Part shown: one piece after another, positions 3,823 to 9,998 of the stretch
Layout of the letters: every line of letters starts with the position of its first letter
Position numbering within the stretch: the first letter of the stretch is position 1
NCBI RefSeq assembly: GCF_030684675.1
Contig: NZ_JAUXXZ010000050.1
Location: 124,001 to 188,000 of the forward strand
Direction of reading: 5' to 3'
DNA length: 64,000 bases
Source of the DNA: Daejeonella sp.
GTDB lineage: Bacteria; Bacteroidota; Bacteroidia; Sphingobacteriales; Sphingobacteriaceae
Program-made: the position numbers and the translations under genes
The notes under the pieces: model-generated
Databases searched by the model: none
Seen by the model: only the letters and a program-made list of their open reading frames with translations
Told to the model about the DNA's origin: nothing

Positions 3823-5154
3823 TTAAATAAACCTATTCACCAAATTCTCCAGGTATTCCTGTTTTCCACTTTTTACTGCCGGTTCTCCCATTTCAACTGC
3901 AAGGTTTCTCAGATCTTCCAGACTCAGCTTTCCTGTTTCAAAATTTTTGCCTTTCCCCGAATCAAAAGAGGCATATCGATCCTGGCGAATTTTTTTATAA
4001 TCCGAATGCTTCAAAATATTATCAGCAGCAATCAGGGCATGAGCGAAAGTGTCCATACCACCAATATGAGCATAAAATAAATCGGCAGGATCAGTTGAGT
4101 TTCTGCGGATCTTGGCATCAAAATTAATACCTCCGCCACCGAAACCTCCAGCCTCAATAATCACCAGCATCGCTTCTGTCAGTTCATTAATATTATTCGG
4201 GAACTGGTCGGTATCCCAACCATTCTGATAGTCGCCGCGGTTCGCATCGATTGAACCCAATAAGCCTGCATCAGCACTTACCTGCAGTTCATGCTGGAAA
4301 GTATGACCAGCCAGCGTTGCATGATTGACTTCAATATTCAGTTTAAAATCATCCATCAGATCAAACTGACGCAGAAAACTGATCACTGTAGCGGCATCGT
4401 AATCATACTGATGTTTACTTGGCTCACAGGGTTTTGGTTCAATGAAAAAAGTGCCCTTAAATCCATTCTTTCGCGCGTAATCCCTTGCCATGTGCAGGAA
4501 TTTTGCAAGATGCTCCTGCTCACGCTTCATATCTGTATTCAGCAGACTCATATATCCCTCACGCCCCCCCCAGAACACATAATTCTCACCATTGAGGGCA
4601 ATAGTGGCATCCAGAGCCGCCTTTACTTGTGCTCCGGCATGGGTCAGGACATGAAAATCAGGATTAGTCGAGGCTCCGTTCATATAACGGCGATGCGAGA
4701 AAAGGTTGGCGGTGCCCCAGAGTAATTTTACACCGCTGGCGTTTTGTTTCTCTTTCGCATAAGCAGTAATCGCCTGCAGGCGGCGCTCATTTTCTAAAAC
4801 ATCATTGCCATAATCTACCACATCCACATCATGAAAACAGTAATATGGCAGGTTCATCTTGGTAATAAACTCAAAGGCCGCATCCATTTTATCTTTTGCA
4901 CGTTCAACTGCATCACTTTTTGCATCCCATTGAAAAATATGGGTTGGCTCTCCGAAAGGATCTGATCCGTTTCCAACAAATGAATGCCAGTAAGCACAGG
5001 CAAAACGCAGGGTTTCCTTCATCGTTTTACCAGCAATGATCCTGTTCTCATCGTACCAGCGAAATGCTAATGGATTATTGGATTCAGGTCCCTCATATTG
5101 TATCTGACCTATGCCTTTGAAAAATTCTTTGTCGCCTGTAATGATATTTGCCAT
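3823..5154 (-). CDS. xylA: Xylose isomerase
   Basis: The product converts D-xylose to D-xylulose (cytoplasmic TIM barrel, two divalent metals). Its 443 residues are the normal length for a class II enzyme. Visible motifs are [13 protein letters not shown] with the catalytic His near residue 107, the metal/substrate segment [18 protein letters not shown], and [15 protein letters not shown] with the later metal ligands. The N-terminus [15 protein letters not shown] is characteristic. The partner kinase gene xylB lies 3.4 kb upstream on the same strand. Between them are a rightward CE15 esterase gene, a repeat array and an IS110 element. The 219-nt gap to the divergent esterase gene probably holds both promoters. 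Confidence 0.97.
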
Positions 5155-6573: not shown

Positions 6574-6600
6574 GATTGTGATAGACACTTGTCATTGCCA

Positions 6601-6853
6601 GTGTAGGTTTTTGTCATTGCGAGTGTAGCGAAGCAATCTCCCAGCTTATATTACTAAACATCATAAGATTGCCGCGTCGTGCCTCCTCGCAATGACAACA
6701 CTACTATTGTTGCGAGTGTAGGTTTTTGTCATTGCGAGTGTAGCGAAGCAATCTCCCAGCTTATATTACTAAATATCATAAGATTGCTTCGTCGTGCCTC
6801 CTCGCAATGACAACACTACTATTGTTGCGAGTGTAGGTTTTTGTCATTGCGAG
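6601..6853. repeat. Tandem array of family A palindromes, period 115 bp
   Basis: Two complete 115-bp units (6601-6715 and 6716-6830) are followed by the first 23 bp of a third (6831-6853). Each unit starts gtgtaggtttttgtcattgcgag and contains one palindrome (6613-6696 and 6728-6811) with arms tcattgcgag and ctcgcaatga. The units differ by only a few bases, for example gccgcgtcg versus gcttcgtcg. The third unit is cut by the IS110 element and resumes at 8412. A partial remnant precedes the array at 6591-6600. Confidence 0.92.
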
Positions 6854-6899
6854 GGGTAATTTATTGTATAAAAATCAATATTAATGACGTTAATTTTGC

Positions 6900-7078
6900 A
6901 TAAGGCAAAAAACCTAGAGCAGTATAACAGTCTGAACACTAGTGTTCCAACCTGATTGCGAGTTTTGTTTTAGGGTATAGTATTAATCAATATTGGTGAA
7001 TCTTATGATATCCCGCATGGTAGAAATATCTTATTTATGATACCCTAAGCTTGATGGTTTATAAAAATTTGCCTGTAA
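6900..7078 (+). ncRNA. Candidate bridge RNA of the IS110 element
   Basis: IS110 recombinases are guided by a structured RNA from the noncoding end; here that end lies upstream of the CDS. Seen in sequence are a 14-bp palindrome gaacactagtgttc (6934-6947), attgcgAG at 6955-6962 identical to the left target plus AG, atggtAG at 7016-7022 identical to the element's right terminus plus AG, and the pairing segments tagggtat (6972-6979) and ataccctaa (7040-7048). These fit target-binding and donor-binding loops. The other half-guides are not convincing: only acact (6936-6940) matches the other target side, in complement. Boundaries and strand are inferred, and no promoter was identified. Confidence 0.5.
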
Positions 7079-7082
7079 TCTT

Positions 7083-8387
7083 ATGAGCAGTTTAAGCAAA
7101 ATCTATCCTAAGAGTGCCGGTATTGATATTGGGAGCGAAAAGGTGTATGTTTCTGTAGAGGATCAACCGGTTAGGAACTTCGCAACCTTCACCGCATCTT
7201 ATCGTGAACTGAGCAGTTATCTTAAGGAAAATTCGATCACCCATGTAGCCATGGAAGCAACCGGAATCTATTGGATCACCCTGTATGATGTTCTGGAAAG
7301 TGATGGATTCGATGTTACTTTGGTGAATCCGGCTGACAGTAAGAATCTCCCGGGTCGAAAGACCGATGTACAAGATTGCCAATGGATCCAGCAATTATTC
7401 AGTTACGGACTATTGCGTAAAAGTTTTGTCCCTGAAGATATAGTCAGGAAGTTGAGGGTATATACGCGTATGCGTGAGGATAAACTTCAGATGGCCTCCT
7501 CTCACATCCAGCATATGCAGAAGGCGATGATACAGATGAATATTCGTTTGCCCGAAGTGCTTTCTCAGACCCATGGAGCAAGCGGAATGGCCATGATCAA
7601 GGCTATCCTGGAAGGTGAACGAAATGCAGAGGTCTTACTAAGTTATTGCACCACTTCGCTGATCAAGCGAAAAGGTGTAAATATTCTGCTTGCTCTTGAA
7701 GGAAACTACAAGGAAGAATATCTATTTGAACTACAACAGGCTTATGATGGCTATATGTTTTATTTGGATCAGGTAGCTAAATGTGATCAGGAAGCTGGGA
7801 AAATACTAAAAGAATATAACAGCCGCTCAGACAAGGGTTATAAAGATAATCATCCTATTAAACCCATACGTCATAATAAACCGGAGATCAAACATCTTCA
7901 TGAACTGCTGTTGGGAATTCATGGTGCTAATCCGACAACTCTCCCCGGTTTGACAGATTACAGCCTGATGAAACTCACCGCAGAGCTGGGCAATGATATT
8001 ACTCAATGGCCCACGGTTAAAAACTTTGTATCGTGGTTAGGTTTAGCTCCGGGGAAACATCAATCAGGAAAGATGAATAAGCGAAGCAGGAAAAAGGCAG
8101 TCACCAGAGCCGGACAAATCTTTAAACAGGCAGCACAAAGCATCTTATTGAGTAAACAACCCGGCCTTGGGGTATTCGCCCGAAGAATTAAAGCAAGAAG
8201 GGGTGCTGGTATAGCCATAAAAGCTACGGCAAGAAAAATAGCTGAACTCTATTACAATATATTTTCCACAGGAATGGAATATGTAGAACAAGGGGTCAAA
8301 AGGTATGAAGAAAAACTAAAGGAGCAACAACTCATATTTCTTCAAAAAAAGGCTAATGAATTCAATTTTCAATTAGTTGAAAGATAG
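7083..8387 (+). CDS. IS110 family transposase (DEDD RuvC-like serine recombinase)
   Basis: The product has 434 residues. The N-terminal RuvC-like DEDD domain shows D15 in GIDIGSEK, E59 in MEATGIYW, and D95 and D98 in KTDVQD. A coiled-coil linker spans about 120-250. The C-terminal Transposase_20 domain begins near LHELLLGIHGANPTTLPGL and contains the candidate catalytic Ser328 in GKHQSGK. All expected catalytic positions are present and the frame is intact, so the enzyme may be active. With a guide RNA it would cut and rejoin at the target and donor cores. The ATG at 7083 follows the long noncoding left end. Confidence 0.95.
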   Translation: MSSLSKIYPKSAGIDIGSEKVYVSVEDQPVRNFATFTASYRELSSYLKENSITHVAMEATGIYWITLYDVLESDGFDVTLVNPADSKNLPGRKTDVQDCQWIQQLFSYGLLRKSFVPEDIVRKLRVYTRMREDKLQMASSHIQHMQKAMIQMNIRLPEVLSQTHGASGMAMIKAILEGERNAEVLLSYCTTSLIKRKGVNILLALEGNYKEEYLFELQQAYDGYMFYLDQVAKCDQEAGKILKEYNSRSDKGYKDNHPIKPIRHNKPEIKHLHELLLGIHGANPTTLPGLTDYSLMKLTAELGNDITQWPTVKNFVSWLGLAPGKHQSGKMNKRSRKKAVTRAGQIFKQAAQSILLSKQPGLGVFARRIKARRGAGIAIKATARKIAELYYNIFSTGMEYVEQGVKRYEEKLKEQQLIFLQKKANEFNFQLVER

Positions 8388-8411
8388 AAGATTATGAAAA
8401 ACGTCAATGGT

Positions 8412-8508
8412 AGTGTAGCGAAGCAATCTCCCAGCTTATATTACTAAACATCATAAGATTGCCGCGTCGTGCCTCCCTGCCCGTCCGGTCAGGCGGGCTC
8501 GCAATGAC
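8412..8508. repeat. Family A palindrome, right half, resuming after the IS110 element
   Basis: This continues the third repeat unit: tgtagcgaagcaatctccc..., then the right arm ending ctcgcaatgac. Compared with the intact units it carries about 21 extra bases (8477-8497) between gcctcc and ctcgcaatgac. The extra segment is itself an imperfect palindrome, gcccgtccggtcaggcgggc. A second small mobile hairpin therefore seems to be nested in the arm. Confidence 0.85.
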
Positions 8509-8525
8509 AATACTGCGGAGCAATC

Positions 8526-9998
8526 CTATAAATGCCCCAGCAGCAATTCCTTCCATTCCTGGTAAATCGTTTCGTATTCCTCTGATTTTTGAGGTTCGAT
8601 TTTGCGGAGTGGTTTCAAATTTGCAAATGCATTTTCAGTACTGAATTCTCCAACACCAATTCCAGCACCAATTGCTGCTCCAATACTGCCTTCATTGCTA
8701 TACAATTCTACCGGAACACCACAAGCATTGACAAATGCTTCAATAAAGAGTTCACTTGAAAACATATTCGCTTTGCCGGCACGGATGAGTGTGGGGTTCA
8801 TACCGTTCTCACGCATAATATCGAGTCCGTAACGAAAAGCAAAGGCGATGCCCTCCTGAACTGCCCTGAAAATATGTGCCCGGCTATGCAGGTTCAGGTC
8901 AATATGATGGAAGTGGGCACCGATATTCTTATTATTCAGCATGCGTTCTGCTCCATTTCCAAAGGGCAGGATCCTTAATCCTTTACTTCCTATGCTGATC
9001 GCTGAAGCCTCCGTATTCATGGTATTATAGGCAAGTCCCGATGCAATTATATCCCTGGTCCAGCGATTCAGAATTCCGGTTCCATTGATACAAAGCAATA
9101 CCCCGATTCGTTTTTGTTCCTCTGAAAAATTAACATGAGCAAAGCTGTTAATCCGCGATTCCTCATCGAAAGTCAGCTGATCTGACACCCCATAAATCAC
9201 CCCGGAGGTACCACCATTGGCTGCAACCTCACCCGGTTTTAAAACATTCAGAGAAAGAGCATTATTGGGTTGGTCTCCTGCCTTATAGCTTACAGGAATA
9301 CCCGTCTTTAATGAAAGTCTGACGGCAATTTCAGCACTCAGTCTGCCATGATCCGTAAATACAGGCTGAATCTCCGGGAAAATATCCTCAGGGAAACCAA
9401 AATGATTCAAGACTTCTTTTGAAAGCTCATTCCTGGTAAAGTCCCAGAATACACCTTCCGAAAGAGATGAAACGCTGATATTGATCTCCCCGCTAAGCTT
9501 CATCCCGATAAAATCTCCCGGAAGCATCACTTTATAGATCTTTTCGAAAATTTCAGGCTCATTTTGCTTCACCCAGGCAAGCTTCGAAGCTGTAAAGTTT
9601 CCAGGCGAATTAAGCAGATTGCTCAGGCATTTTTCTTCACCAATCGCCTGAAATGCTTTATTACCAATCTCAACTGCCCTGCTGTCGCACCAGATAATTG
9701 AATTCCGGAGTACTTTTTGCTCTTTATCAACCAATACCAGTCCGTGCATCTGATAGGCAATTCCAATTGCTCCTACTGCTTTCGGATCGTACAATCCCGA
9801 AGCATTTGCTTTAATAATTGCCTGCTGAACATTTTCCCACCATATTTCCGGCGATTGCTCCGCCCATCCGGGATGTTCAGCAATAATCGCCGATTCAGTT
9901 TCAGGGTATTGAACTGTACAAAGGCATCCCTGAGTTTGAGAATCAATAACAGATACTTTGATTGATGAAGTGCCGAGGTCGATACCGAGTAGTAGCAT
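8526..9998 (-). CDS. xylB: Xylulokinase
   Basis: The product has 490 residues and belongs to the FGGY kinase family. It phosphorylates D-xylulose to xylulose-5-phosphate, completing the XylA-XylB route. The N-terminal ATPase motif GIDLGTSSIKV, the substrate segment MHGLVLVD, AGDQPNNALSL, and the C-terminal nucleotide-binding motif SIGAAIGAGIGVGEF are visible. Length is normal. The 3' end lies only 17 bp from the repeat that carries the IS110 element, so the insertion left the reading frame intact. The separation from xylA may have changed co-expression of the two enzymes. Upstream (9999-10110) is a short low-complexity stretch of gttgtctg-type repeats. Confidence 0.94.
   Translation of the reverse strand: MLLLGIDLGTSSIKVSVIDSQTQGCLCTVQYPETESAIIAEHPGWAEQSPEIWWENVQQAIIKANASGLYDPKAVGAIGIAYQMHGLVLVDKEQKVLRNSIIWCDSRAVEIGNKAFQAIGEEKCLSNLLNSPGNFTASKLAWVKQNEPEIFEKIYKVMLPGDFIGMKLSGEINISVSSLSEGVFWDFTRNELSKEVLNHFGFPEDIFPEIQPVFTDHGRLSAEIAVRLSLKTGIPVSYKAGDQPNNALSLNVLKPGEVAANGGTSGVIYGVSDQLTFDEESRINSFAHVNFSEEQKRIGVLLCINGTGILNRWTRDIIASGLAYNTMNTEASAISIGSKGLRILPFGNGAERMLNNKNIGAHFHHIDLNLHSRAHIFRAVQEGIAFAFRYGLDIMRENGMNPTLIRAGKANMFSSELFIEAFVNACGVPVELYSNEGSIGAAIGAGIGVGEFSTENAFANLKPLRKIEPQKSEEYETIYQEWKELLLGHL

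What the first reader, a model, noticed from the sequence alone, without database searches (positions are those of the whole stretch)
6900..7078. Possible bridge RNA with readable guide matches to target and donor
The 229-nt left noncoding end of the IS110 element contains attgcgAG (6955-6962), identical to the left half of the insertion target plus AG. It also contains atggtAG (7016-7022), identical to the element's own right end plus AG. Both end with the same dinucleotide that is shared by the two flanks. IS110 recombinases are guided by an RNA with one loop for the target and one for the donor, so these are the expected signals. Only partial matches are seen for the other half of each loop (acact at 6936-6940; ataccct at 7039-7045 is one base short), and which strand is guided is not resolved.
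Basis: partly seen in the sequence, partly recalled or inferred. Interest (0 to 1): 0.78.

Follow-up and report, generated by a model that had tools for sequence, protein, structure and literature searches.

The report
Bridge RNA with reversed guide order
A jumping gene in this bacterium appears to carry an RNA that tells it where to insert, and comparison with dozens of relatives shows how that RNA is read, including two features that differ from the best-studied example of such an RNA.

Summary
Two loops in a covarying fold carry guides that track target and donor across relatives. The target-loop 8-mer matches the left side far beyond chance (50 elements: mean suffix 6.1 nt against 3.75 swapped, 0 of 20,000); the donor-loop 8-mer matches the right end (44 elements: 6.18 against 4.09). 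The six junctions found in the host genome all sit in one REP-like repeat. Strand: the 3' arms read left flank and right end; the target-loop 5' arm (W: ACACT) reads the right flank antisense, more weakly. This is opposite to IS621 and the same as IS1111-type IS4321, yet the RNA lies upstream of the gene as in IS621. Unexpected: the donor-loop 5' arm repeats a left-end stretch (X) about 20 bp inside the core (26 of 38 elements share 6 nt or more, 3.3 expected). Transcription and activity are untested. New variant of a known kind.

The parts
6843..6853 (+). left flank: end of the REP-like target repeat, GTCATTGCGAG; core AG = 6852-6853
   Evidence: identical at 3 of 3 left junctions found in the genome; 26-nt uninterrupted target present 8 times in the genome
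6854..8411 (+). IS110-family element (second core AG = 8412-8413)
   Evidence: ends defined by the 3 left and 3 right junctions found in the genome
6873..6882 (+). X in the left end, AATCAATATT, repeated in the donor loop 5' arm at 6985-6994
6885..6891 (+). left copy of subterminal inverted repeat TGACGTT
   Evidence: matches AACGTCA 8400-8406; covaries over 34 elements
6891..6898 (+). candidate Bacteroidota -7 promoter element TAATTTTG (consensus TAnnTTTG recalled)
   Evidence: TAnnTTTG found in 14 of 39 elements in this region; no expression data
6900..7078 (+). inferred bridge RNA (ends not mapped)
   Evidence: conserved fold
6907..6920 (+). outer stem P1, 5' side; 3' side 7049-7062
   Evidence: 11 of 14 pairs with a change on both sides, 80.4% of cells paired
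6926..6969 (+). target-binding loop: P2 6926-6930/6965-6969, hairpin about 6940-6954
6936..6940 (+). right-target guide ACACT on the 5' arm, antisense to AGTGT 8412-8416
   Evidence: class-wide test; weak in W alone
6955..6962 (+). left-target guide ATTGCGAG on the 3' arm
6970..7048 (+). donor-binding loop, closed by P4 6970-6978/7040-7048, hairpin P5 6995-7002/7007-7014
6985..6994 (+). X in the donor loop 5' arm
7017..7023 (+). right-end guide ATGGTAG on the donor loop 3' arm
7083..8387 (+). DEDD recombinase, 434 aa
   Evidence: Pfam DEDD_Tnp_IS110 and Transposase_20; IS621 8wt6 E=1.2e-10
8400..8411 (+). right end AACGTCAATGGT: inverted repeat 8400-8406; ATGGTAG runs 8407-8413 including core
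8412..8422 (+). right flank AGTGTAGCGAA, continuation of the target repeat
   Evidence: identical at 3 of 3 right junctions found

Best explanation
The 5' noncoding end encodes a bridge RNA that works with the adjacent DEDD recombinase. [quoted passage not shown] The donor loop recognises the element: its 3' arm (ATGGTAG) pairs with the right end and its 5' arm (X) with a left-end segment about 20 bp from the core, each beside a subterminal inverted repeat. The recombinase exchanges strands at AG. Shown: the fold, the guide-flank and guide-end covariation, the repeated use of one target repeat, and the guide order. Inferred: transcription, RNA-protein binding, real base pairing, catalysis, and the function of X.
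For: Target guide: (mean suffix 6.10 against 3.75+-0.15; 27 of 50 at 7 nt or more against 1.4 expected; reverse-complement control 3.52 against 3.37). Ends defined by copy comparison, without the RNA: guide matches 8 of 8 (W), 7 of 8 (G310, G372), 6 of 8 (G016), 6-7 (two flank types of G326), 5-6 (G302), 5-7 (G233). Natural retargeting among recombinases 91-95% alike: guide GTTTTGAG at sites ending TTTTGAG (three elements) or GTTTGAG (one), guide GTCGTGAG at a GTCGTGAG site. Right end, with the guide picked by motif alone: 6.18 against 4.09+-0.17, 0 of 20,000; 29 of 44 at 7 nt or more against 3.2 expected; reverse-complement control 3.50 against 3.61. Right target: 3.27 against 2.30+-0.16, p=1e-4, n=33. 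X: 6.21 against 4.03+-0.18, n=38. Fold: (covariation score 0 of 500 shuffles in both). Order controls IS621 and IS4321.
Against: No expression or binding data. W folds no better than its shuffles (z -0.25), and no Rfam family matches. The right-target guide is weak: 11 copies in G388 share only AG on the right, relatives L011, L092 and L014 have runs of 2-3 pairs, and its z (4.2) is hardly above unrelated comparisons (up to 4.1). 45 of 122 elements lacked the search motif and were not tested. In one search, 8 of 50 rows gave only 3-4 nt (L037, L077, L142, L148, L087, L100, L137, L152; L148 with a wrong candidate 8-mer), 12 of 44 gave only 2-5 nt. X lies too far from the core to fit the IS621 geometry.
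Confidence: 0.92

Rival explanations
1. The recombinase protein, not an RNA, reads the target; the loop matches are coincidence or shared repeat ancestry.
For: The targets are REP-like repeats that several IS families hit (PMC1525189 abstract). In W alone the matches are only moderately significant.
Against: Guides change together with flanks among closely related recombinases; the signal holds for 40 elements without CTGAG guides (6.18 against 3.62).
Confidence: 0.03
2. Bridge RNA with the IS621 polarity; the 3'-arm matches are mis-assigned and the true left-target guide is on the 5' arm.
For: IS621 also has its RNA upstream of the gene, and published covariation places the bottom-strand guide on the 5' arm (PMC11208160 passages).
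Against: 5' arm against left flank in sense gives only z 3.7, off the core, while the 3' arm gives z 16.8 (the latter partly circular) and holds where ends are set by copies; the IS621 control gives the opposite order.
Confidence: 0.03
3. X is not a donor guide but a duplicated recombinase-binding or regulatory DNA site (left end and donor-loop DNA), or a trace of sequence conversion.
For: X lies about 20 bp from the core, in the same sense as the top strand, and near the candidate promoter; donor-loop arms adjacent to the core are the known geometry (PMC11208158 passages).
Against: X sits in the unpaired 5' arm and varies jointly in many lineages (AATCAATAT, AAGCAATAA, TCTGAAGGT, GGTTTAT, TAACATT, AGCCACACA), as guides do.
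Confidence: 0.4

Closest known systems
IS621 bridge RNA (IS110 group, E. coli; PMC11208160, PMC11208158)
   Same: RNA upstream of the recombinase gene; target loop 5' of donor loop; guides include the core dinucleotide; REP-type targets; DEDD recombinase.
   Different: In IS621 the 5' arms read left flank and right end in sense and the 3' arms read the other sides antisense; here the 3' arms read left flank and right end. Core AG instead of CT. Longer inverted repeats and X are present here.
IS1111-type seekRNA, e.g. IS4321 on R751 (PMC11187229)
   Same: Top-strand match lies 5' of bottom-strand match (IS4321 checked); subterminal inverted repeats of 7 bp or more in many members.
   Different: IS1111 RNAs usually lie downstream of the gene and their recombinases are 330-350 aa (paper); here upstream and 434 aa.
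ISEc21 seekRNA (IS110 type; PMC11187229)
   Same: Noncoding region upstream of the gene.
   Different: Reported guide order is the reverse of IS1111 and so the reverse of this one (paper section read; not re-tested).
REP-targeting insertion sequences ISPpu9, ISPpu10, ISPa11 (PMC1525189 abstract)
   Same: Insertion into repetitive extragenic palindromes.
   Different: Other hosts and repeats; not compared by sequence here.

Membership tests
IS110 family recombinase | DEDD_Tnp_IS110 and Transposase_20 domains; G--P----SG motif | tested here: met
   (70.5 and 41.5 bits, over cut-offs 29 and 21.3); GLAPGKHQSG in the translation; motif from PMC11187229
Bridge RNA / seekRNA | two internal loops in a conserved structured RNA | tested here: met
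   (structures derived from the same alignments)
Bridge RNA / seekRNA | one loop complementary to the target, covarying with it | tested here: met
Bridge RNA / seekRNA | one loop complementary to the donor ends | tested here: met
   right end met; left end matched only through X, not next to the core
Bridge RNA / seekRNA | RNA is transcribed and bound by the recombinase | not testable with these tools
   needs RNA sequencing of the purified complex
IS110 group (IS621-like) | noncoding region upstream of the gene | tested here: met
   229 nt upstream, 24 nt downstream
IS110 group (IS621-like) | bottom-strand guide on the 5' arm, top-strand guide on the 3' arm | tested here: not met
IS110 group (IS621-like) | short subterminal inverted repeats (2-3 bp) | tested here: not met
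   7 bp in W; 6 nt or more in 29 of 34 elements against 10.5 expected
IS1111 group | subterminal inverted repeats of 7-17 bp | tested here: met
   W has 7 bp; the left copy is 31 bp from the core
IS1111 group | top-strand guide 5' of bottom-strand guide | tested here: met
   class-wide; in W by the position of ACACT before ATTGCGAG
IS1111 group | noncoding region downstream; recombinase 330-350 aa | tested here: not met
   upstream; 434 aa
IS1111 or IS110 group by phylogeny | recombinase groups with that clade | tested here: inconclusive
   tree of 49 rows: 44 long recombinases form one clade, IS4321 next, then IS621; both references are on very long branches

The most novel reading that the evidence does not exclude
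A large clade of long (about 400-480 aa) IS110 recombinases, seen here in Bacteroidota, Pseudomonadota, Actinomycetota and others, uses upstream bridge RNAs with the IS1111 guide order, so RNA position and guide polarity are separable traits; and their donor loop recognises the left end by a second, same-sense guide about 20 bp inside the element, so one loop may staple both ends beside their inverted repeats.
Probability: 0.5. Interest if true: 0.75.

Novelty: new variant of a known kind. Interest (0 to 1): 0.62.

Why it matters
Bridge RNAs are programmable recombination guides. The seekRNA paper reports one guide order for IS1111 types (RNA downstream) and the reverse for the one IS110-type element it tested (RNA upstream), as in IS621. 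This clade has the RNA upstream with the IS1111 order, so the order cannot be assumed from position when annotating or reprogramming such elements. X, if it is a guide, is a donor-recognition rule not described in the passages I read and directly testable by compensatory mutation. Elements of one lineage that retarget by changing a few guide bases offer ready natural guide-target pairs.

Tried and rejected
Single-sequence folding of W is not significant (z -0.25), so it was not used as evidence. Rfam has no matching family (one hit, E 0.94, 19.7 bits against a gathering score of 80). ATACCCT as the second donor guide was rejected because it forms stem P4. A left-end guide in the antisense sense (IS621 logic) was tested and not found: reverse complement of the left end against the donor 5' arm 5.64 against 5.38, p=0.037 (uncleaned) and 4.08 against 4.05, p=0.45. 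A same-sense right-flank guide for the target 5' arm was not found (p=0.51).

Weak points of the tests. One search's X figure held a bad row (L144); X and the right-target test were redone on the set cleaned, with 6 rows dropped (L019 as a duplicate; L027, L048, L076, L088, L144 as uncertain). In one search the core of most elements was placed with the guide itself, so its target z is partly circular; searches are not. One search counts a match anywhere in a 160-nt window, so some matches are not at the junction (for W the first one found is in the neighbouring repeat copy; L072 and L073 are low complexity). The diagonals tested were chosen, several right ends were set by hand, and other diagonals gave p 0.015-0.03 with strict pairs; the L035 match is a run of one base. 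The sister-clade check used 7 of the 16 elements printed, those whose ends I could place by eye from the match; L060, L062, L067, L069, L073, L079-L081 and L083 were not resolved or not tried. In one search one measure (further pair types) was reached by 27 of 500 shuffles. A longest-match test did not recover the IS621 and IS4321 guides because of mismatches; one search recovered the IS621 guides with mismatches allowed and the IS4321 order from the empty site, where a 7-nt sense match (TTTTCTG) overlaps the 6-nt TATTTT.

Full report
WHAT IS THERE. Window 6854-8411 is an IS110-family element: a 229-nt noncoding left end, a 434-aa DEDD recombinase at 7083-8387 and a 24-nt right end. The host is a fragmented genome (G000, 84 contigs). 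Other copies are cut at contig ends, leaving three left and three right junctions in all. The three left junctions read TTTTGTCATTGCGAG before the element, and the three right junctions read AGTGTAGCGAAGCAATCTC after it. The target is a REP-like repeat; the uninterrupted 26-mer GTCATTGCGAGTGTAGCGAAGCAATC occurs eight times in the genome, and GTCATTGCGAG occurs eight times in the window against 0.04 expected. The core shared by both junctions is AG.

They are real, with two coordinates off by one. Judged on W alone the left-flank and right-end matches are unlikely by chance (P 0.0016 and 0.022; both together 0 of 5000), ACACT is borderline (0.049), and the fourth is nothing (0.66). ATACCCT belongs to a stem.

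THE FOLD. Eight close relatives, W included (A2), give an outer stem, a target loop and a donor loop. With the structure named, 92.2% of cells pair, 20 of 45 pairs show changes on both sides, and the covariation score is 0.329 against 0.185 shuffled (0 of 500) and at most 0.133 when slid. Over 21 more diverse sequences (A1): 94.6% paired, 74 double-change cells against 22.2, score 0.484 against 0.232 (0 of 500). These structures were derived from the same alignments, which favours them. W alone folds no better than shuffles.

THE TARGET GUIDE. The 8 nt after a CCYG-like motif on the 3' arm of the target loop equal the left flank up to and including AG. I collected 128 elements; 122 had enough upstream sequence, 77 had the motif at the required distance, in 58 distinct genomes or loci, and 50 remained after dropping duplicates and short rows. 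The guide's longest suffix found in a 160-nt upstream window averages 6.10 nt against 3.75+-0.15 for swapped guides (0 of 20,000); 27 of 50 match by 7 nt or more against 1.4 expected; the reverse-complement control is 3.52 against 3.37. Poor rows are L142, L037, L077 and L148 (3 nt) and L100, L137, L087 and L152 (4 nt); L148 was scored with a wrong 8-mer, and some candidate 8-mers of distant rows are uncertain. Seven multi-copy sets define their ends without reference to the RNA and agree. In one unnamed genus, recombinases 91-95% alike carry guides GTTTTGAG, GTCGTGAG and GCGGAAAG; the sites end in TTTTGAG or GTTTGAG for the first, GTCGTGAG (8 of 8) for the second, and ATGGAAAG or AGGAAAAG for the third.

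THE RIGHT TARGET. The 5' arm of the target loop (W: ACACT) is complementary to the right flank beginning at the core. Over 33 elements the strict complementary run on the expected diagonals is 3.27 against 2.30+-0.16 (p=1e-4); control diagonals give p 0.03 and 0.015. In one search the three best diagonals of this comparison lie on one line next to the core, but their z (about 4) is matched by unrelated comparisons (up to 4.1), so the weight rests, whose diagonals were chosen. The guide is weak: 11 copies of one element in G388 share only AG on the right, while 9 of 11 have CTGAG directly on the left and the other two have CTGAGAGAG.

THE DONOR. The 3' arm of the donor loop equals the right end through AG. 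With the guide picked by motif alone and sought in a 230-nt window around and after the gene's end, the mean suffix is 6.18 against 4.09+-0.17 for swapped guides (0 of 20,000); 29 of 44 match by 7 nt or more against 3.2 expected; the reverse-complement control is 3.50 against 3.61; without the common GGTAG guides 28 elements give 5.75 against 3.97. Changes track: ATGGTAG, ATGGGTAG, ATGGCAG, GATAG. The left end is matched differently. The donor 5' arm repeats, in the same sense, a left-end segment about 20 bp inside the core (W 6985-6994 and 6873-6882): mean 6.21 against 4.03+-0.18, 26 of 38 at 6 nt or more against 3.3 expected; no signal in the first 18 nt (p 0.37) or in the reverse complement (p 0.45); z 6.6 at left-end positions 22-26, counted from 0. 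Both donor segments lie beside a subterminal inverted repeat that also covaries (7.53 against 5.17+-0.21 over 34 elements).

POLARITY. On a real IS621 copy (L153) the left flank matches the 5' arm (8 of 9) and the right end the donor 5' arm (8 of 9), with the antisense right flank and left end on the 3' arms (5 of 6 and 5 of 7), as published (PMC11208160 passages). On IS4321 of R751 the antisense right-target match (10 nt) lies 5' of the sense match (6 nt), with the noncoding region downstream, as published for IS1111 types (PMC11187229 sections). The element here has the IS4321 order with the RNA upstream. In the sister clade, 7 elements whose ends I could place by eye (of 16 printed) show left-flank matches of 7-10 nt and right-end matches of 6-8 nt, after motifs like those that precede the 3'-arm guides: Mesorhizobium, Burkholderia (two copies), Rhodospirillales, Magnetospirillum and two Streptomyces; their right-target arms gave no clear match. 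The tree places 44 long recombinases in one clade, but IS621 and IS4321 are on very long branches.

HOW IT LIKELY WORKS. The RNA loads on the recombinase; the target loop opens the repeat end and the donor loop holds the circular element's junction; strands exchange at AG (known for IS621 at its CT core, PMC11208158 passages; inferred here). X may let the donor loop bind the left end beside its inverted repeat, possibly holding both ends for excision; this is speculation.

NOVELTY. Bridge RNAs are known, and REP targeting is known (PMC1525189 abstract). In the papers found by the searches I saw no report of the upstream position with the IS1111 order or of X, but I read only passages of PMC11208160 (plus its section on diverse IS110s), PMC11208158 and PMC12045711, the abstract and five sections of PMC11187229, and listings of the rest; figures and supplements were not seen, and Extended Data Fig. 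10 of PMC11208160 could show it.

Noticed in passing
window 6595-6853 and 8385-8499: A 115-nt unit containing the REP-like repeat stands in tandem just left of the element (6595-6709, 6710-6824, 97% alike), with a 69% match at 8385-8499 on the right.
   Followed up: partly
window 3823-5154 and 8526-9998: By recall of sequence family, the flanking minus-strand genes look like xylose isomerase and xylulokinase, so an esterase-like gene, the repeats and the IS lie between two xylose genes.
   Followed up: no
L194 and L196 (G310): TCTGTCAATGGTAG occurs 22 times in genome G310; 12 were viewed. It is the left flank of the G310 element in 3 of 3 copies, resembles the right end of W-type elements, and in two of the 12 is followed by what looks like a decayed W-type left end: one IS110 targeting sequence that resembles another's end.
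   Followed up: partly
L020 and L146/L152: In L020 the target-loop and donor-loop 8-mers are the same (TATGGAAG). In L146/L152 two copies stand head to tail, the right end of one serving as left flank of the next.
   Followed up: partly
L133 and L177 (G388): Two of 11 copies have left flank CTGAGAGAG instead of CTGAG, as if the exchange had slipped along AG repeats.
   Followed up: no
L101, L122, L129, L166, L170, L179 (G372): Six copies with left flank TTAGGGAA and right end CAGGAT: the shared core does not look like AG and may be GA.
   Followed up: no
L153 1980-2130: This IS621 copy has a duplicated left end whose inner boundary lies in its own target-guide sequence ATCGGGCCT, as if it had inserted into its own guide.
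   Followed up: no
G000 contigs C66, C3, C9 (L007, L008, L010): Three other IS110-type recombinases in the host genome (open frames 392, 359, 335 aa), outside this clade in the tree.
   Followed up: no
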